From the IMG/VR virus record IMGVR_UViG_3300011115_000785, positions 1 through 23,102 of that record: DNA of 23,102 nucleotides, one strand, 5' to 3'. The first letter of the stretch is position 1, and each line of letters begins with the position of its first letter. Source of the stretch: a virus. A program made the position numbers and the translations under genes. Below, in pieces: positions 4,069 through 14,143 of this stretch. Below the pieces are notes generated by a model. That model saw nothing but the letters and a program-made list of their open reading frames with translations. It searched no databases and had not been told where the DNA came from.

Positions 4069-5037
4069 ATGGATTTTGTTGATGTAAAATACATCAATTT
4101 GATATCTTCTCGCTTCCAAAAGTTTAAAAGAGTCAAAAATAATCTTTATAACTTTCGTTGTCCGATTTGTGGAGATTCTCAAAAAAACAAAAGTAAGGCA
4201 CGAGGGTATTTGTATCAGGTTAAAAATAATACAAACTTCAAGTGTCATAATTGTGGTATCAACATCTCTTTTAATAACTTTTTAAAACAAATTGATATAG
4301 AGATTCATAAACAATATTCTTTTGAGAAGTTTAAAGAAGGGCACACCGGTAAAAACTTTGCAGTTGAAGAACCTAAATTTGAATTCAAGACTCCTGAATT
4401 CAAATCAAAGATAGATTTACCAAGAGCATCTCAAAACCCAAGTGCGTCTGGATATTTACTTGGAAGGAAGTTAAACCCTGATAAATTTTATTATGCTGAA
4501 AAATTTAAGGAATGGACAAACTCAATCAAACCCACATTCCCAAATACCAAATACGAAGAACCCAGGATTATTATTCCTTTATTCTATCAAAATACTCTTG
4601 TTGGGTTTCAGGGAAGATCACTGGGTATTAATAAGATTAAATATATTACTGTAATGCTCCACGAAGATGCACCAAAAATTTATGGACTTGATGATGTTAA
4701 AAAAGACGAAACTGTTTACGTTACTGAAGGACCGTTTGATTCCACATTCCTTTCAAATGCGATTGCTCTGTGCGGAGCTGATGGTGATATTAGTAAGTGG
4801 GGGATTTGCGATCCTGTGTGGATCTATGATAATGAACCACGAAATTCTGAAATTCACTCAAGAATCTCAAAGTGTATTGATCGTGGAGAAAAAGTTGTAA
4901 TCTGGCCCAATAATATTCAGGAAAAAGATATTAATGATATGATTCTTTCTGGACACAATGTTAAGGAAATGATAGAATCAAATACATACGCTGGATTAGA
5001 GGCAAAACTTAAATTTACTACCTGGAAAAAAATATGA
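4069..5037 (+). CDS. 61: DNA primase, T4 gp61-like
   Basis: This 322-residue protein is close in length to T4 gp61 (about 340). It makes RNA primers for lagging-strand synthesis together with a gp41-type helicase. A zinc-binding N-terminus has Cys31-x2-Cys34 and Cys59-x2-Cys62. A TOPRIM-type catalytic region follows: VYVTEGPFDS with Glu220, then WIYDNEPR with Asp254, then KDINDMI near the C-terminus. A sigma70-like promoter and the AAAGG ribosome site support the start. The stop overlaps the nrdA start by four bases (ATGA), so primer and dNTP synthesis are coupled in one transcript. Nothing is missing in the motifs. The main uncertainty is only whether it acts alone or needs a host or phage helicase partner outside the window. 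Confidence 0.9.
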   Translation: MDFVDVKYINLISSRFQKFKRVKNNLYNFRCPICGDSQKNKSKARGYLYQVKNNTNFKCHNCGINISFNNFLKQIDIEIHKQYSFEKFKEGHTGKNFAVEEPKFEFKTPEFKSKIDLPRASQNPSASGYLLGRKLNPDKFYYAEKFKEWTNSIKPTFPNTKYEEPRIIIPLFYQNTLVGFQGRSLGINKIKYITVMLHEDAPKIYGLDDVKKDETVYVTEGPFDSTFLSNAIALCGADGDISKWGICDPVWIYDNEPRNSEIHSRISKCIDRGEKVVIWPNNIQEKDINDMILSGHNVKEMIESNTYAGLEAKLKFTTWKKI

Positions 5038-6671
5038 GTAACGGTCTTAAGGTTAAAAAAAGAAGTGGTCACGTTGAACAAATAGATCTTGATAAGATGC
5101 ATGTGATGGTTGATGAGGCATGTAAGGGTCTTGCAGGGGTTTCTGCATCACAAGTTGAGATACAGTCTGGAATTCAGTTTTATGATGGCATTACAACTTC
5201 AGAAATTCAGGAGATTCTGATTCGTTCTGCATCAGATTTGATTGATTTGGAACATCCCAACTATCAATTTGTTGCTGCTCGTCTGCTTCTCTTTGCAATT
5301 CGTAAGCAACTTTATGGAAAGATGCAGGAACTTCCACACTTGAATCAACATATTATGGACTGCGTTTCCGCAGAAGTTTATGATTCTGATGTTTACAATA
5401 AATATTCCAAGGAAGAGATTGATACTGTAAATTCCTTTATTCGTCATGATCGTGATTATCTGTTTACCTACGCAGGATTGCGTCAGGTAGTTGATAAGTA
5501 TCTTGTACAGGATCGCAGTAGTGGTGGAGTATATGAGACTCCACAGTTTATGTACGTTATGATCGCACTCACAATATTTGCGGAATATCCCAAAGAAACC
5601 AGACTTTCATACGTCAAGAGGTATTATGACGCAATCTCAAGACACCGAATCAACATTCCCACACCAATCATGGCAGGGGTCAGAACCCCCCTTCGTCAAT
5701 TTGCATCTTGTGTTTTGGTTGATGTTGATGACTCCCTCGATAGTATCTTTAGCAGTGATATGGCTATTGGCAGGTATGTCTCACAAAGGGCTGGTATCGG
5801 TATCAACGCAGGCAGAATTCGTGGCATCAACAGTAAAATCCGAGGTGGAGAAGTTCAGCATACAGGTGTTATCCCATTCCTCAAAAAGTTTGAGTCAACT
5901 GTTAGGTGTTGTACACAAAACGGGATTCGTGGTGGAAGTGCTACTGTCCACTTTCCAATCTGGCACCAAGAAATAAATGATATATTAGTTCTCAAAAATA
6001 ACAAAGGAACCGAAGACAATCGTGTTCGTAAGTTAGATTATTCAATTCAGATTAGTAAAATATTTTATGAAAGATTTATTCAAGATGGTGAGATTACGCT
6101 TTTCTCCCCGCATGATGTACCTGGACTATATGATTCTTTCGGAACAATTGAGTTTGATTGTCTCTACCTTGGATACGAAAATAACCCTAATGTTTCAAAG
6201 AAAACAATAAAGGCACAGGAACTTATTCTCAATCTTCTCAAAGAAAGAGCAGAAACGGGTAGAATCTATATTATGAATATAGATCACTGTAATACTCATA
6301 GTTCTTTTATTGATAAGATTGAGATGAGTAACCTTTGTGTTGCTGGTGATACTCAAATTACAATTGAGTTTTATTATGGAAAAGATTATGTAAGAAAAAC
6401 AATTAGCATCAAAAACTTGGATGGTTATATTGATGATCCAAACTATAAAGATCTAAAAGTTCTTTCTTACAATATTGAATCCAATCAAGAAGAATGGAAA
6501 CCAATTACTGCTTTTGCTGAAACCTCTCCAAAAGCAAAGGTAATGAAAATTACTGATGAAGAAAGTGGTAAGAGTATTGTGGTTACACCAGAGCACAAAG
6601 TATTCACAAAAAATCGTGGATATGTAATGGCAAAAGACCTAACCGAAACAGATGAGTTGGTAATCATCTAA
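5034..6671 (+). CDS. nrdA: Ribonucleotide reductase class Ia large subunit, N-half fused to split-intein N-fragment
   Basis: Residues 1-434 are the N-extein of NrdA, which reduces ribonucleoside diphosphates with NrdB. An ATP-cone covers about residues 5-95, and RQFASCVLVDVDDSLDSI carries Cys226, matching redox Cys225 of E. coli. After EMSNL the chain enters an intein at Cys435 (CVAGDTQI, block A). Block B is TPEH with His521. The frame ends LVII, so the intein N-fragment is 111 residues long and ends with its own stop. The partner half starts at 7399. The two must meet and trans-splice to make a 765-residue enzyme, near the T4 length. The sequence closely resembles the NrdA-1 type of split intein described from marine metagenomes ('fractured genes'). 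The start overlaps the primase stop. Confidence 0.95.
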   Translation: MSNGLKVKKRSGHVEQIDLDKMHVMVDEACKGLAGVSASQVEIQSGIQFYDGITTSEIQEILIRSASDLIDLEHPNYQFVAARLLLFAIRKQLYGKMQELPHLNQHIMDCVSAEVYDSDVYNKYSKEEIDTVNSFIRHDRDYLFTYAGLRQVVDKYLVQDRSSGGVYETPQFMYVMIALTIFAEYPKETRLSYVKRYYDAISRHRINIPTPIMAGVRTPLRQFASCVLVDVDDSLDSIFSSDMAIGRYVSQRAGIGINAGRIRGINSKIRGGEVQHTGVIPFLKKFESTVRCCTQNGIRGGSATVHFPIWHQEINDILVLKNNKGTEDNRVRKLDYSIQISKIFYERFIQDGEITLFSPHDVPGLYDSFGTIEFDCLYLGYENNPNVSKKTIKAQELILNLLKERAETGRIYIMNIDHCNTHSSFIDKIEMSNLCVAGDTQITIEFYYGKDYVRKTISIKNLDGYIDDPNYKDLKVLSYNIESNQEEWKPITAFAETSPKAKVMKITDEESGKSIVVTPEHKVFTKNRGYVMAKDLTETDELVII

Positions 6672-6675
6672 TATG

Positions 6676-6729
6676 ATAGGAAGTATAATTTCTTTATTTT
6701 ATAAATAGTTATGAGATTACACTTCCTAT
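6676..6729 (+). promoter_or_regulatory. Hairpin with late promoter in its loop, controlling the endonuclease start
   Basis: Arms 6676-6692 and 6713-6729 pair over 17 positions with one A-C mismatch and one G-U pair (outer arm ATAGGAAGT with ACTTCCTAT). The loop holds TATAAATA at 6700-6707. A late transcript would begin near 6713, losing the left arm, whereas read-through transcripts from nrdA keep the whole hairpin, whose right arm ends one base before the endonuclease ATG. This is the layout known for T4 I-TevI, where early translation is blocked by a hairpin and late transcription bypasses it. Confidence 0.75.
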
Positions 6730-6730
6730 A

Positions 6731-7405
6731 ATGAAAACATATATTGTTTATAAAATTACTAATAAGAAAAATGGAAAGTTTTATGTGGGAAAAACTGAAT
6801 ACTCATTAGAACATCGTTGGAACCGTCATTTATCATCGGCAAGAAATGGGTCAAAATTTAGATTTCATTCTGCGATTAGAAAATATGGTGAAGATTGTTG
6901 GAACTTGTCTGTGATTGAAACATACCAAACTGAAGATGAAAATTTAATCAACCAAAAAGAAACACACTTTATCAAACTCTTTGAGAGTGATACTAAAAAA
7001 GGATATAATGCCACTTCAGGTGGAACTGGTGGATGGATGCTTCCCAGATGCTCGCAAGAGATTCAGGAAGAGTGGAGAAACAATATTTCTGTAAGAACTA
7101 CTGGTTCCAACAATCCAAACCATTCTGGATATACTGATGAGCAACTTATAGAGGTTGGAGTGAAGTTTTCTGAAAAATATGGATTTATTGGTGGAAGAAA
7201 AAGAATAGTTGAGTTTGCTCTTAACGAATTGAATATAAAGTTTCCAAAACATTTTTCTAAAAATAGATTTGGAGGAAACCATCAAAACTTTTATAAATGT
7301 ATTGAAGAGCAGACTGGATTGGTGTATAATTCATATTATAGAGACGAAACTCAAAGAACACTTGCTAAACAACTTTTAGAACAAAACAGGAGAAAAAAAT
7401 GCTAA
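6731..7405 (+). CDS. Free-standing GIY-YIG homing endonuclease between the nrdA halves
   Basis: The 224-residue protein starts with a complete GIY-YIG nuclease domain: YIVYKITNKKNGKFYVGKT (residues 4-22), Arg29/Arg32 in LEHRWNRHL, and the likely metal-binding Glu77 in NQKETHF. GYNATSGGTGG follows, and the C-terminal half is a presumed DNA-binding part with a helix-rich, Lys/Asn-rich sequence. It probably cuts an unfractured nrdA allele and so spreads the split-intein insertion, although the target is not shown by the sequence. It has no Shine-Dalgarno sequence of its own; a hairpin with an internal late promoter ends one base before the ATG. Its stop overlaps the start of the nrdA C-half (ATGCTAA). 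Fractured genes often carry Vsr-like endonucleases, so a GIY-YIG enzyme here is noteworthy. Confidence 0.88.
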   Translation: MKTYIVYKITNKKNGKFYVGKTEYSLEHRWNRHLSSARNGSKFRFHSAIRKYGEDCWNLSVIETYQTEDENLINQKETHFIKLFESDTKKGYNATSGGTGGWMLPRCSQEIQEEWRNNISVRTTGSNNPNHSGYTDEQLIEVGVKFSEKYGFIGGRKRIVEFALNELNIKFPKHFSKNRFGGNHQNFYKCIEEQTGLVYNSYYRDETQRTLAKQLLEQNRRKKC

Positions 7406-8493
7406 AGATTGAATATCTTGAAGAAGAAATCCCAGTCTATGATATTACTGTAGAAGGAACACATAATTTCTTTGCAAATAATATTCTGGTCCATAATTGT
7501 CAAGAAATCACATTACCAACAGTTCCGATTCAGCATATTGATGAGACCACAGGAGAAATCGCACTGTGTATTCTTTCTGCCATCAATGTGGGTAAAGTCA
7601 AGTCCGATGATGAACTCGAAGAACTTTGTGAACTTTCTGTCCGTGCTCTCGAAGAACTGATAGATTATCAAAAGTATCCTGTACTGGCAGCAGAAGTTGC
7701 CACAAAGGCACGGAGATCTCTTGGAATCGGTTATATTGGTCTGGCACATTATCTTGCTAAACTGGGGTTCAAATACGACTCTCAAGGAGCATGGGATGCA
7801 GTTCACGGACTTTCAGAATCCTTTCAATATTTTCTTCTCAAGGCATCAAATAAAATTGCTCAAGAAAAGGGATACTGTGAATCTTTTGGACGCACCAAGT
7901 ATTCTCAAGGTCTACTCCCGATTGATACCTATAAGAAAGATGTGGATGAAATCTCTTCAGTCAAACTTCAACACGATTGGGAAGGACTCAGAGCATCGAT
8001 TCTGAAACACGGTCTCAGACACTCCACACTGTCCGCACAGATGCCCTCCGAGAGCAGTTCTGTGGTATCTAACGCAACTAATGGTATCGAACCTCCTCGC
8101 GGATTTCTGTCCATCAAGAAATCCAAGAAGGGTCCACTGAAACAAATTGTTCCTCAATACGCAACACTTAAAAATAATTATACGTTGCTCTGGGATATGA
8201 AAAGTAATGATGGATATATTAAAATTGTTGCGATGATTCAGAAATTTTTTGACCAGGCCATCTCTGGAAACTGGTCTTATAATCCAGAAAATTATCCAGA
8301 TAATGAAGTTCCTGTAACTGTGATAGCAAATGATTTTTTGACTACATATAAGTATGGGTGGAAGACTTCATATTATCAAAATACATACGACATTAAAACT
8401 GATGAGGTTGAGGAGTCAAAACCCACTTTGTCTGAATTGGTTGACGAATTAAGTAAAGTAGTAGAAGGGGAGTGTGAATCCTGTGCAATTTAA
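7399..8493 (+). CDS. nrdA: Split-intein C-fragment fused to the C-half of NrdA
   Basis: Residues 1-33 are the intein C-fragment: block F PVYDITVEGTHNFFANN and block G ILVHN with the terminal His32-Asn33. Cys34 is both the +1 splicing nucleophile and the start of the C-extein (CQEITLPT); it matches Cys439 of E. coli NrdA, the thiyl-radical residue. Cys57 in GEIALCILSA matches Cys462. The radical-transfer pair is Tyr325-Tyr326 in SYYQNT, and the C-terminal redox pair is Cys359/Cys362 in GECESCAI. The start is supported by AGGAG at 7388-7392, six bases upstream, and it overlaps the endonuclease stop. All catalytic residues of a working enzyme are therefore present once the two halves are spliced. 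The gene ends within the start region of nrdB. Confidence 0.95.
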   Translation: MLKIEYLEEEIPVYDITVEGTHNFFANNILVHNCQEITLPTVPIQHIDETTGEIALCILSAINVGKVKSDDELEELCELSVRALEELIDYQKYPVLAAEVATKARRSLGIGYIGLAHYLAKLGFKYDSQGAWDAVHGLSESFQYFLLKASNKIAQEKGYCESFGRTKYSQGLLPIDTYKKDVDEISSVKLQHDWEGLRASILKHGLRHSTLSAQMPSESSSVVSNATNGIEPPRGFLSIKKSKKGPLKQIVPQYATLKNNYTLLWDMKSNDGYIKIVAMIQKFFDQAISGNWSYNPENYPDNEVPVTVIANDFLTTYKYGWKTSYYQNTYDIKTDEVEESKPTLSELVDELSKVVEGECESCAI

Positions 8494-9668: not shown

Positions 9669-9719
9669 TAAGACTGAAGTTGAATTTTATATAAATAATA
9701 TTGAACAACTTCAGTCTTA
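9669..9719 (+). promoter_or_regulatory. Hairpin with late promoter in its loop, before the second GIY-YIG gene
   Basis: Arms 9669-9682 (TAAGACTGAAGTTG) and 9706-9719 (CAACTTCAGTCTTA) pair perfectly over 14 bp. The 23-base loop contains TATAAATA at 9690-9697. A late start near 9703 would drop the left arm. The right arm ends two bases before the ATG at 9722, so a full-length read-through RNA from nrdB would bury the start region. The design is the same as at 6676-6729, but the arm sequences differ. Confidence 0.8.
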
Positions 9720-9721
9720 TA

Positions 9722-10336
9722 ATGAATAATTATATTCTTTACTATTACTTAAGGGAGGACTTTAGTTCTCCCTTTTATGTTGGTTATGGAAAACCAAGAA
9801 GAATAAATGCAAAGCATTTGAGAAGTAATGGAGCAAACTTATTACCACCAAGAGAAAGAAGGTGGATTGTAAAATCTGAATTATCTAAAGAAGAAGCAGT
9901 AGAGTTGGAAATAAAACACATAGCACTTTGGAAAAGAGAGTGTGATGGAGGAGTTTTATTAAATCAAAATCTTGGTGGAGAGGGAAAACCTGGAGGACAA
10001 AAAACAAAAGGATTTGGCGGAAGAAAGCATAGTGAAGAAGCAAAAAGAAAAATAAGTGAAAAAGTTACTGGTAAAAATAATCCAAGATATGGTATTAGAT
10101 TATCTCAAGAAATAAAAACTAAAATAAGTGAAAATATAACACCAAAGTTTGGTAAAGACAATCCAAACTCTAAAACTTGGAAGATTGTCTCTCCAGAAAA
10201 TAAAGAGTATATTATTACTGGGACATTAAAGGAATTTTGCGAGTCTCAAAATATTTCATATGCAACTATGTCGGCCGCAATCAAATATAATAGAAAAGGA
10301 CCAAGAAAAAATGGATGGGGTATTGAGAAAGTTTAG
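9722..10336 (+). CDS. GIY-YIG homing endonuclease inserted after nrdB
   Basis: From the ATG at 9722 the protein has 204 residues. A GIY-YIG domain opens with NNYILYYYLREDFSSPFYVGYGKPRR, here shown only in part by its YILYYYL and FYVGYG motifs. A Glu in AVELEIKHI is the likely metal ligand. Two NUMOD3-type DNA-binding repeats follow (GRKHSEEAKRKISEK and YGIRLSQEIKTKISEN, each ending near a K-N-P or D-N-P turn), then a NUMOD1-like helix-turn-helix (TLKEFCESQNISYATMSAA). A TTG farther upstream lies inside the regulatory hairpin, so the ATG is preferred. The element sits between nrdB and a copy of its 3' end, the mark of insertion at that site. The stop overlaps the following passenger gene in another frame. 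Confidence 0.87.
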   Translation: MNNYILYYYLREDFSSPFYVGYGKPRRINAKHLRSNGANLLPPRERRWIVKSELSKEEAVELEIKHIALWKRECDGGVLLNQNLGGEGKPGGQKTKGFGGRKHSEEAKRKISEKVTGKNNPRYGIRLSQEIKTKISENITPKFGKDNPNSKTWKIVSPENKEYIITGTLKEFCESQNISYATMSAAIKYNRKGPRKNGWGIEKV

Positions 10337-10824: not shown

Positions 10825-10989
10825 ATGCCTAGAAATGAAATGAGTAAAGACGAACTCAAAGTTCGTGTATTGAAATTAAAACATAAGTTATATGAAGATC
10901 AAGTAAATCAACTTATTACGAATCCCAAGGTTCTGGCTCATAAATATTTGGACGAAGTTATTAACATTATTGATGAGTATAGGTATTAA
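10825..10989 (+). CDS. Small helical phage protein (54 aa), unknown function
   Basis: The frame encodes 54 residues with MSKDELKVRVLKLKHKLYED and a C-terminal NIIDEYRY. It is almost entirely helical and charged. The first ATG (10825) falls on the end of the terminator T run; the second in-frame ATG at 10840, giving a product starting MSKDEL, may be the true start. I recall small cyanophage proteins of this shape (LK..LY...DEYR), without a function. The stop overlaps by four bases the end of the convergent minus-strand endonuclease gene. Confidence 0.6.
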   Translation: MPRNEMSKDELKVRVLKLKHKLYEDQVNQLITNPKVLAHKYLDEVINIIDEYRY

Positions 10990-11684
10990 ATTAAAAATAT
11001 AATACCCTCCTCTAATTGTTTCTTATATTTTTGAAATCCCACTTTATTGTCTTTCATCCATTCAGTTACACTTTTCCAAGTTTTAGTTCCATCACTAATC
11101 TTATGTCTCCTGGAATTTAAAAGTTTATTTTTATGCTCTTCTGATAGTTTTGTTCCATACATAGGATTTCCTTCACCAGAATACATTTCACTCAATTTTT
11201 GTCTAACATCTGGTCTTTTAGCAGGATTGTTATCGCCAGTCATAAGTTTTCGTTTATCTTCTCTATACTTATCATTTCTCAAAACAACCTCATAAATTCC
11301 TGCTCTTTCGCTTACAAAAAATCTACCCTCAATATTTGTGTTATAATAATCATCAGTCATTAGAACATCTCTTTTGAATTGTTCCATAGTTTCATAATAA
11401 GACATAGATTTTTTATGAGGGCATAAGTAAAGTATTTCTCTTAAGAATTTATCTCCTCCTAAAAGTTTTACATCTTCATTTAATTCATCACAGGAACCAA
11501 AATAATTTTTCCAATCACTTTCTTTTGTTTTTCTGCGACCAGTTTTTCTATCTTTTCTTCTTGACCAAAAAGATTTTTTACCAATATATTTTCTATCATT
11601 TGTTAAATTTGTTATCAGATAAACAAATCCTTCTATGCCTTTAGGAGCATCTATAAAATCTTCGTCGTTATATTTCCAAGTCAT
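10986..11684 (-). CDS. GIY-YIG homing endonuclease on the minus strand
   Basis: The 232-residue product (from the second Met, 11684) has a GIY-YIG core, GFVYLITNLTNDRKYIGKKS, a basic segment (SRRKDRKTGRRKTKES), and NUMOD3-type repeats (NNPAKRPDVRQKLSEMY and NPMYGTKLSEEHKNKL) for DNA binding. An earlier ATG at 11702 would lie almost at the predicted late transcription start (motif at 11709-11716), making the RNA leaderless. The ATG at 11684 instead has GGAAGAAAG seven bases upstream, so I chose it. It is the only minus-strand gene in the window, is convergent with a 54-residue gene, and looks like an independent insertion. Its target is unknown; nearby nrdB or the small genes are candidates. 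Confidence 0.85.
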   Translation of the reverse strand: MTWKYNDEDFIDAPKGIEGFVYLITNLTNDRKYIGKKSFWSRRKDRKTGRRKTKESDWKNYFGSCDELNEDVKLLGGDKFLREILYLCPHKKSMSYYETMEQFKRDVLMTDDYYNTNIEGRFFVSERAGIYEVVLRNDKYREDKRKLMTGDNNPAKRPDVRQKLSEMYSGEGNPMYGTKLSEEHKNKLLNSRRHKISDGTKTWKSVTEWMKDNKVGFQKYKKQLEEGIIFLI

Positions 11685-11708
11685 AGAAATACTTTCTTCC
11701 ATTAAAAT

Positions 11709-13395: not shown

Positions 13396-13830
13396 ATGAG
13401 AGAACATCATACTAAAAATAAAGGAGATTTGGGAGTTTTAAAAGCACAACTTGATTTATATGAAAAAGGTTATTTAATTCTTACTCCACAAACTGAGCAT
13501 TCTCCGTTTGACCTTGTTGGATATAAGAATGGAAAATTTTTAAGAATACAAGTTAAATACAGGACTGCGAAAGATGATAAAATAGTAGTCGCATTTAGCA
13601 CCTGTTGGGCGGATAAAAATGGCACTCATACTCAAGATTATGATAAAAATGAAATTGATGTAATGTGTATATACTGTCCTGATACTGATAAGTGTTATTA
13701 TGTAAATCCAAAAGATTGCGATAAATGTTTTAATTTAAGATTGTCCACCCCTAAAAATAATCAAAAAATTGGAATACATTTAGCTGAAAATTATATCGAA
13801 ATTCCGTCGATACTTGACACCATCTCATAA
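13396..13830 (+). CDS. I-Ssp6803I-like PD-(D/E)xK homing endonuclease
   Basis: The 144-residue protein matches the I-Ssp6803I group of homing endonucleases (PD-(D/E)xK fold), known from a group I intron in a cyanobacterial tRNA-fMet gene. Visible features are KNKGDLGVLKAQLDLYEKGY, then TEHSPFDLVGY with Asp39, and FLRIQVKYR with Gln52-x-Lys54, the metal-binding core. Four cysteines (MCIYC...KCYY...DKCF) might bind zinc. ATG 13396 is preferred; TTG 13387 is a possible earlier start. Here the gene is free-standing, between tRNA-Arg and the tmRNA, with no intron seen around it. A hairpin with a late promoter precedes it, as for the GIY-YIG genes. Its end contains the -35 box of the tmRNA promoter. 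The target may be a tRNA or tmRNA gene. Confidence 0.85.
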   Translation: MREHHTKNKGDLGVLKAQLDLYEKGYLILTPQTEHSPFDLVGYKNGKFLRIQVKYRTAKDDKIVVAFSTCWADKNGTHTQDYDKNEIDVMCIYCPDTDKCYYVNPKDCDKCFNLRLSTPKNNQKIGIHLAENYIEIPSILDTIS

Positions 13831-13845
13831 ATCGTGCTATAAATA
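13814..13845 (+). promoter_or_regulatory. Combined sigma70 and late-type promoter for the tmRNA
   Basis: TTGACA (13814-13819) is 18 bases before TATAAA (13838-13843), and the same bases begin the late motif TATAAATA (13838-13845). Both would start RNA near 13850-13851. The -35 lies inside the endonuclease gene. Confidence 0.75.
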
Positions 13846-13849
13846 TTGA

Positions 13850-14068
13850 CGTTCAAGAGGATAAGAATTCTGATGCTTCGGACAGCGGTTCGACTCCGCT
13901 CATCTCCATTGCACGGGGATGCCAAGGTTTCGACGGGGTATAAAGGTTTTATCTGTTGACGGAACAAACAAACAAACGCAAACAAAATTGTTGCATTTTC
14001 GAGGACTTCTGTACCTTCTTTGGTATAGAACTCTGACGAATCTCAAGGGGGCATTCGTGCCCCTTTTC
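13850..14068 (+). ncRNA. ssrA: Circularly permuted two-piece tmRNA (transfer-messenger RNA)
   Basis: The acceptor piece comes first, as in cyanobacterial permuted genes. T-arm AGCGG-TTCGACT-CCGCT (13884-13900) leads to CATCTCC and discriminator A (13901-13908). Six bases (13909-13914) separate it from the coding piece, which opens GGGGATG (13915-13921) and pairs fully with CATCTCC. The third pair is G13917-U13905, the G3-U70 alanine identity element. The D-arm region has GGTTTCGACGGGG. P2 is 13860-13871 with 13942-13953 (two mismatches). After the tag frame a P5-type hairpin surrounds its end, and a candidate pseudoknot lies at 14036-14063, with ACGAAT/ATTCGT and GGGGC/GCCCC interleaved. This second structure is strained and may form only partly. 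The 5' end is inferred from the promoter; the 3' end is approximate. CCA is not encoded. Confidence 0.9.
13978..14028 (+). other. tmRNA tag-peptide reading frame
   Basis: The resume codon GCA at 13978 opens the peptide ANKIVAFSRTSVPSLV, ended by TAG at 14026-14028. The Prochlorococcus tag known to me is ANKIVSFSRQTAPVAA: the same 16-residue length, 9 identical positions, and an aligned proline. The last three residues differ: SLV instead of VAA, which is the part recognised by ClpXP-type proteases. Confidence 0.88.
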
Positions 14069-14071
14069 TAT

Positions 14072-14143
14072 GCCCTTGTAGCTCAGTGGTAGAGCAACGC
14101 TTTTGTAAAGCGAAGGTCATCGGTTCAAATCCGTTTGAGGGCT
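14072..14143 (+). tRNA. tRNA-Thr (anticodon TGT)
   Basis: Acceptor arms GCCCTTG/TGAGGGC, D-arm GCTC-AGTGGTA-GAGC, anticodon loop TTTGTAA, and a T-arm with TTCAAAT are all present. The gene begins right after the tmRNA and has no promoter of its own, so the two probably share a precursor. It reads ACA. CCA is not encoded. Confidence 0.95.

What the first reader, a model, noticed from the sequence alone, without database searches (positions are those of the whole stretch)
6336..7500. nrdA fractured at its radical cysteine by a split intein with a GIY-YIG gene between the halves
Seen: the intein N-fragment starts at codon 435 after EMSNL and ends at its own stop. The C-fragment (33 residues, ending VHN) opens the second gene, and its +1 residue is the catalytic Cys of CQEITLPT. 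All splicing blocks (A, B, F, G) and RNR residues are present. Known: fractured genes with split inteins, including NrdA types, were reported from marine metagenomes, with a Vsr-like endonuclease family. Here a GIY-YIG enzyme fills that place. RNR is inactive until trans-splicing, so splicing could gate dNTP synthesis.
Basis: partly seen in the sequence, partly recalled or inferred. Interest (0 to 1): 0.72.

Follow-up and report, generated by a model that had tools for sequence, protein, structure and literature searches.

The report
Split-intein nrdA carrying GIY-YIG homing endonuclease
A marine-type phage carries its DNA-building-block enzyme gene broken in two at the catalytic cysteine, with protein-splicing halves to rejoin the pieces and a selfish DNA-cutting gene in the gap; this arrangement is a known kind, but its control region appears to copy the gene's own target site.

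Summary
nrdA is split into 5034-6671 and 7399-8493 at the radical cysteine (Cys439 of E. coli NrdA). Each half carries its part of a complete split intein, and a GIY-YIG gene (6731-7405) lies between. This is a 'fractured gene', a kind reported in 2009 and including NrdA. Isolated phages carry it at the same codon with HNH (Yersinia TG1) or, one codon on, distant GIY-YIG (Klebsiella KP13-7) genes.

The close GIY-YIG relatives found in IMG/VR (74 at 67% identity or more) all lie in this nrdA intein. Intein and GIY-YIG have spread together: synonymous divergence is 0.3-0.45 against 0.6-0.8 in flanking nrdA; presence is patchy; one phage pair (L028/L156) differs by exactly this insert plus four clustered flanking changes.

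The leader before the GIY-YIG gene is a conserved hairpin with a T4-late-promoter-like box in its loop. Its arms copy the intein-free nrdA codons just after the cysteine (E-I-T-L-P-T): top site of 12,000 tested, beyond all 200 shuffles, reproduced by KP13-7. I infer I-TevI-like control: late expression, and autorepression through a copy of the homing site. Splicing, cleavage and repression are untested. dNTP gating is speculation.

The parts
5034..6335 (+). nrdA 5' half: N-extein (434 aa; ATP cone, all-alpha domain, start of barrel), ending ...EMSNL
6336..6671 (+). IntN (111 aa + stop), begins with Cys1 at the Cys439 position; blocks A and B
6676..6692 (+). 5' arm of the leader hairpin; its reverse complement reads GAAATTATACTTCCTAT, a second, inverted copy of the E-I-T-L-P codons (one base off in this window)
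6700..6707 (+). TATAAATA, T4-late-promoter-like box in the hairpin loop (exact in 40 of 43 distinct leaders)
6713..6729 (+). 3' arm of the hairpin / putative operator GAGATTACACTTCCTAT, copy of nrdA codons after Cys439 (E I T L P T)
6731..7405 (+). free-standing GIY-YIG homing endonuclease gene (224 aa); I-TevI-like catalytic domain about 1-95, separate C-terminal domain about 135-224
7388..7392 (+). AGGAG Shine-Dalgarno-like sequence for the second nrdA gene, inside the GIY-YIG ORF (6-nt spacing)
   Evidence: direct reading
7399..7497 (+). IntC (33 aa, MLKIEY...ILVHN); its ATG and the GIY-YIG stop overlap (7 nt)
7498..8493 (+). nrdA 3' half: C-extein (331 aa), first residue is the Cys439 equivalent

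Best explanation
A mobile element made of a split intein plus a free-standing GIY-YIG homing endonuclease has settled in the Cys439 codon of a T4-like (cyanophage-like) nrdA. Inferred working: the two NrdA halves are translated separately, the second from its own Shine-Dalgarno sequence; IntN and IntC associate and splice in trans, giving the 765-residue subunit. On transcripts reading through from nrdA the leader hairpin closes off the start of the GIY-YIG gene. Late in infection a promoter in the hairpin loop makes a short transcript lacking the 5' arm, so the nuclease is made. The nuclease recognises the conserved codons just 3' of Cys439 in intein-free nrdA of a co-infecting phage and cuts nearby; repair from the element-bearing copy inserts intein and GIY-YIG together. 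The leader carries two inverted copies of the same codons flanking the promoter, so the nuclease probably also represses itself, as I-TevI does. Shown by sequence: anatomy, catalytic residues, hairpin, promoter-like box, leader/target match, joint spread, exact empty site. Inferred: splicing, cleavage, timing, autorepression.
For: Anatomy and catalytic residues. The contiguous-intein model best matches the NrdJ-1 split intein 8ubs; the GIY-YIG model best matches the I-TevI catalytic domain 1ln0, E 1e-4. No known intron RNA in the gap. All 74 close GIY-YIG relatives kept and all 75 leader-pattern stretches lie in this intein; where one flank is missing the contig ends there. Synonymous p-distance steps from 0.6-0.8 in exteins to 0.3-0.45 at the intein ends. 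Element presence needs 26 changes on the nrdA tree, shuffled mean 28.0. L028/L156 empty-site pair. Identical GIY-YIG genes in L075/L124 with nrdA pS 0.67. Leader/target match: 13.06 of 16 at Cys+6 over 77 intein-free alleles, first of 12,000 positions, above 200 shuffles; KP13-7's different leader picks the same site. Hairpin 95.9% paired with 3 compensated pairs. Precedents for late promoter, hairpin and operator: I-TevI, Aeh1 mobE (PMC2988022).
Against: No activity shown. No strong Shine-Dalgarno sequence lies between the hairpin and the GIY-YIG ATG (in I-TevI the ribosome site itself is in the hairpin), so the translation-block step is weaker here. The leader/nrdA match rests on amino-acid-forced positions; wobble positions match no better than expected from codon usage, so it could be a captured exon fragment rather than a selected operator. 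In L002 and L071 the operator is degraded or absent. Loci are related, so nominal p-values overstate independence. The L028/L156 pair fits loss by conversion as well as gain.
Confidence: 0.8

Rival explanations
1. The GIY-YIG cassette is the only mobile part: it invades an existing contiguous mini-intein at the linker and so fractures it; the intein itself does not move.
For: Contiguous mini-inteins at the same codon exist (L008, L026, L035, L054, L061, L069, L079, L080). Cis and split alleles interleave on the intein tree (6 changes, at least 4 forced). L050 (split) and L054 (cis) are 96.8% identical through IntN. L075/L124 share an identical GIY-YIG with unlike IntN.
Against: The divergence step lies at the outer intein ends, not at the cassette. 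L028/L156 shows intein plus GIY-YIG present or absent together. The leader copies the extein codons, not the cis linker. Both processes may operate, with recombination between cis and split alleles.
Confidence: 0.15
2. Trans-splicing is a domesticated switch that gates dNTP synthesis in the phage's interest.
For: The break is at the radical cysteine, so unspliced halves should be inactive (inference). IntC and GIY-YIG are under purifying selection.
Against: Nearly identical phages lack the element altogether (L028/L156), and presence is scattered as if at random over the nrdA tree. Nothing points to regulated splicing.
Confidence: 0.05
3. The leader inverted repeat is only an RNA hairpin; its likeness to nrdA is a relic of how the cassette was captured and has no operator role.
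For: Compensated pair changes. Wobble positions show no extra match.
Against: Both arms keep the forced positions of E-I-T-L-P-T in most leaders. KP13-7, with only 35% GIY-YIG identity, keeps the same codons with other wobble bases.
Confidence: 0.3
4. The break is an assembly artefact or a dead gene.
For: The contig is metagenomic.
Against: Same order on dozens of contigs and in isolates; open, conserved frames; purifying selection.
Confidence: 0.01

Closest known systems
Fractured genes with split inteins (Dassa et al. 2009, doi 10.1093/nar/gkp095; NrdA types; text not held, known here via PMC3653736 and from memory)
   Same: Conserved phage enzyme gene broken by a split intein with a free-standing endonuclease gene between the halves; 7 nrdA cases from ocean metagenomes.
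   Different: From memory the best-known endonuclease there is Vsr-like; here it is GIY-YIG with an I-TevI-like leader. Whether any of those nrdA loci held this same GIY-YIG could not be checked.
Yersinia phage vB_YenM_TG1 nrdA (KP202158)
   Same: IntN stop, endonuclease gene, IntC, same Cys439 codon; hairpin with TATAAATA in the loop.
   Different: Annotated HNH endonuclease, unrelated leader sequence; IntN 35% identical.
Klebsiella phage KP13-7 nrdA (OP617745)
   Same: Split intein at the active-site cysteine with a GIY-YIG gene and a leader hairpin copying E-I-T-L-P codons.
   Different: GIY-YIG 35% and IntN 32% identical; inserted one codon later (SNLC|C); the gene is broken at further sites too.
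I-TevI (T4 td intron) and its late promoter/operator/hairpin
   Same: GIY-YIG catalytic domain, late promoter, hairpin over the start, promoter-overlapping copy of the homing site (PMC2988022).
   Different: I-TevI sits in a group I intron, not a split intein; its hairpin hides a Shine-Dalgarno sequence.
Aeh1 nrdA-a / mobE / nrdA-b
   Same: nrdA broken by a hairpin-regulated homing endonuclease (PMC2988022, PMC3653736).
   Different: HNH enzyme, no intein; the halves work as separate chains.

Membership tests
Fractured gene with split intein | Conserved enzyme gene in two ORFs, together full length | tested here: met
   434 + 331 aa cover E. coli NrdA with Cys439 at the join
Fractured gene with split intein | IntN and IntC complementary, with blocks A, B, F, G and +1 nucleophile | tested here: met
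Fractured gene with split intein | Free-standing endonuclease gene between the halves | tested here: met
   GIY-YIG ORF 6731-7405
Fractured gene with split intein | Trans-splicing activity | not testable with these tools
   needs co-expression
GIY-YIG homing endonuclease (I-TevI-like) | GIY-YIG domain with conserved catalytic Tyr/Arg/Glu | tested here: met
   Pfam E 1e-12; Y7, Y18, G20, R29, E77 do not vary in 22 sequences (assignment as catalytic by position is inferred); fold match 1ln0
GIY-YIG homing endonuclease (I-TevI-like) | Mobility into element-free alleles | tested here: inconclusive
   Empty-site pair, divergence step, patchy tree: strong but indirect
GIY-YIG homing endonuclease (I-TevI-like) | Site-specific cleavage | not testable with these tools
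   needs biochemistry
I-TevI-type control element | Late-promoter box and hairpin before the ORF | tested here: met
I-TevI-type control element | Promoter-adjacent copy of the homing site | tested here: inconclusive
   Leader/nrdA match tops all positions, but that this nrdA site is the homing site is inferred
I-TevI-type control element | Hairpin sequesters a Shine-Dalgarno sequence | tested here: not met
   No Shine-Dalgarno sequence in the 3' arm; the hairpin ends 1 nt before the ATG
Vsr-like endonuclease loci | Vsr-like domain in the inserted gene | tested here: not met
   Only GIY-YIG found

The most novel reading that the evidence does not exclude
In this split-intein family one inverted repeat does three jobs: its arms are two copies of the endonuclease's homing site (autorepressor operators), they flank the late promoter, and in RNA they fold into a hairpin over the start codon. 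The homing site is the set of codons following the radical cysteine, so the control region is tied to the active site of the host enzyme, and the same rule holds in distant phages such as KP13-7.
Probability: 0.55. Interest if true: 0.6.

Novelty: new member of a known kind. Interest (0 to 1): 0.5.

Why it matters
Dozens of related loci in four states (intein-free, contiguous mini-intein, split intein with GIY-YIG, intein plus a second break) give a natural series for studying how split inteins arise and spread. The leader/target match predicts a homing site and an operator from sequence alone, so homing and autorepression of an intein-linked endonuclease become directly testable. The family also holds many naturally varied split-intein pairs of possible use in protein engineering.

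Tried and rejected
Group I/II intron in the gap: no Rfam match. Leader pattern or close GIY-YIG outside nrdA: none found. Operator match to the contiguous-intein linker: none beyond chance. Extra wobble-position match of host codons to the operator: none. Difference in operator match between split and free alleles as an immunity mark: none (p 0.41). Same operator reasoning for the second GIY-YIG gene at 9724: best nrdA site (LPIDTYKKD codons) not above shuffles. TG1 HNH leader: no match at the nrdA site. Isolated phages with this same GIY-YIG: none above 60% identity. Intact second nrdA: none on this contig or on 14 longer relatives, all fragments. The 2009 fractured-gene paper is not in the held library.

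Full report
WHAT IS THERE. The window is a whole 23,102-bp viral contig. NrdA is up to 84% identical to Synechococcus phage NrdA over the extein stretch tested, gene order primase-nrdA-nrdB is as in cyanophage S-MbCM6, and a cyanobacterial-type tmRNA is present, so a T4-like cyanophage is likely. nrdA is two genes: 5034-6671 (434-aa N-extein, 111-aa IntN, stop) and 7399-8493 (33-aa IntC, 331-aa C-extein). The IntN first Cys and the IntC +1 Cys both align with Cys439 of E. coli NrdA. Between them lies a 224-aa GIY-YIG gene, 6731-7405, whose end overlaps the ATG of the second nrdA gene; that ATG has its own AGGAG at 7388-7392.

RELATIVES. IntN relatives in IMG/VR: 153, of which 80 loci were read. 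Most have the same order; others have a contiguous mini-intein at the same codon, or that plus a second break 13 codons on. A GIY-YIG search gave 83 relatives: 74 of the 80 kept are at least 67% identical and all lie in this split intein, the rest fall to 37% or less. The scan relies on conserved peptides, so it favours close relatives. A leader pattern gave 75 stretches, all in this intein. L072 holds a broken GIY-YIG frame.

THE ELEMENT MOVES. Over 529 pairs with diverged nrdA, synonymous p-distance is mostly 0.6-0.8 in both exteins and mostly 0.3-0.5 across IntN, GIY-YIG and IntC, with the step at the intein ends (the IntN alignment is uncertain in its first half and at its end). On a tree of 94 nrdA exteins the split state needs 26 changes, at least 17 forced by well-supported branches, against 28.0 for shuffled labels. 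L028 (split) and L156 (intein-free) are 99.9% and 99.3% identical over 3.1 and 2.5 kb of flank, joined exactly at the cysteine codon. Within 1.5 kb either side they differ at 8 positions, four of them at -13, +3, +9 and +12: the mark of a short conversion tract, direction unproven. The codon before the intein is CTT in 27 of 34 split but 19 of 77 free alleles (nominal p 8e-8; codons further upstream do not differ). GIY-YIG genes are identical in L075 and L124, whose nrdA pS is 0.67 and whose IntN differ, and cis and split inteins interleave on the intein tree, so recombination inside the intein also occurs.

THE LEADER. Between the IntN stop and the GIY-YIG ATG all but a few loci carry ATAGGAAGTGTAATTTC-loop-GAGATTACACTTCCTAT, with TATAAATA in the loop in 40 of 43 distinct leaders. 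The RNA fold of the window's leader is stronger than shuffles (z -4.3). In 33 distinct sequences 95.9% of cells pair and three pairs show compensated changes (2 of 500 shuffles as high); relatedness weakens that control. The 3' arm matches 18 of 20 bases of L156 just after Cys439. Over 77 distinct intein-free alleles the window's 16-mer GAGATTACACTTCCTA matches 13.06 of 16 on average at Cys+6, first of 4,560 nrdA positions and strands (first of 12,000 in the wider scan), next best 10.4; 200 shuffled 16-mers reach at most 11.8. It meets all 10 bases forced by E-I-T-L-P-T but no more wobble bases than codon usage predicts, as fits a nuclease reading conserved codons. The 5' arm is an inverted second copy. 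KP13-7, whose GIY-YIG is 35% identical, has the arm GAAATCACACTACC, with other wobble bases, yet picks the same site first (11.17 of 14; 40 shuffles at most 9.8).

HOW IT PROBABLY WORKS. T4 endonucleases I-TevI and segB and Aeh1 mobE are held back by a hairpin on early transcripts and made from a late promoter; I-TevI also binds a promoter-overlapping site resembling its homing site (15 of 20) and represses itself (PMC2988022). The leader here has the same layout. One feature differs: no Shine-Dalgarno sequence sits in the 3' arm. The GIY-YIG model resembles the I-TevI catalytic domain (1ln0, E 1e-4; mean pLDDT only 69); its C-terminal domain comes in two types. The contiguous-intein model resembles NrdJ-1 (8ubs, E 3e-8). 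None of splicing, cleavage, repression or timing is shown.

WHAT IS KNOWN. Fractured nrdA with split inteins was reported from ocean metagenomes (7 nrdA cases, cited in PMC3653736); the original paper is not held. TG1 carries an annotated HNH gene, KP13-7 a GIY-YIG gene, and Campylobacter phage IBB_35 an unassigned ORF within the intein at this part of nrdA. So the arrangement is a new member of a known kind. The inverted homing-site copies in the leader were not found described for intein-linked endonucleases in the library searched, which is limited.

Noticed in passing
window 9669-10336: Second free-standing GIY-YIG gene after nrdB, preceded by a perfect 14-bp inverted repeat (TAAGACTGAAGTTG) with TATAAATA in the loop, unrelated in sequence to the first leader; L170 carries a close copy. 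Its arm's best nrdA match (LPIDTYKKD codons) is not above shuffles.
   Followed up: partly
window 10986-11702 (-): Third endonuclease gene, SegE-like GIY-YIG (Pfam E 7e-38), with TATAAATA just upstream of its start but no hairpin.
   Followed up: no
window 13819-14119: Phage-borne tmRNA gene of cyanobacterial type (Rfam 99.9 bits; a permuted-tmRNA model also matches), near tRNAs Arg, Thr, Gly and Ser.
   Followed up: no
L035 5966-7013; also L039, L054, L055, L057, L059, L058, L061, L079: Contiguous mini-intein at Cys439 plus a second break 13 codons downstream: a different ORF (L035 6172-6936, no Pfam match) separates the nrdA pieces with no intein seen, reminiscent of Aeh1 mobE.
   Followed up: partly
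IntN of all split loci (window about 6350-6500): The first half of IntN is hypervariable in sequence and length while the second half, GIY-YIG and IntC are strongly conserved; several unlike IntN types carry near-identical GIY-YIG genes.
   Followed up: partly
L013 and L017: Identical N-half and IntN and nearly identical GIY-YIG, but diverged IntC and C-half (pS 0.55): a recombination break near the GIY-YIG/IntC border.
   Followed up: no
L006 8015-9364 and L061 9544-9636: Further intein-like fragments near C-extein residue 185, i.e. a second intein site in the same nrdA.
   Followed up: no
L300 (Klebsiella phage KP13-7) 1529-7059: nrdA in four pieces with an HNH gene, the GIY-YIG split intein, and a second split intein before TSSQISNS; annotated mostly as hypothetical proteins.
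   Followed up: partly
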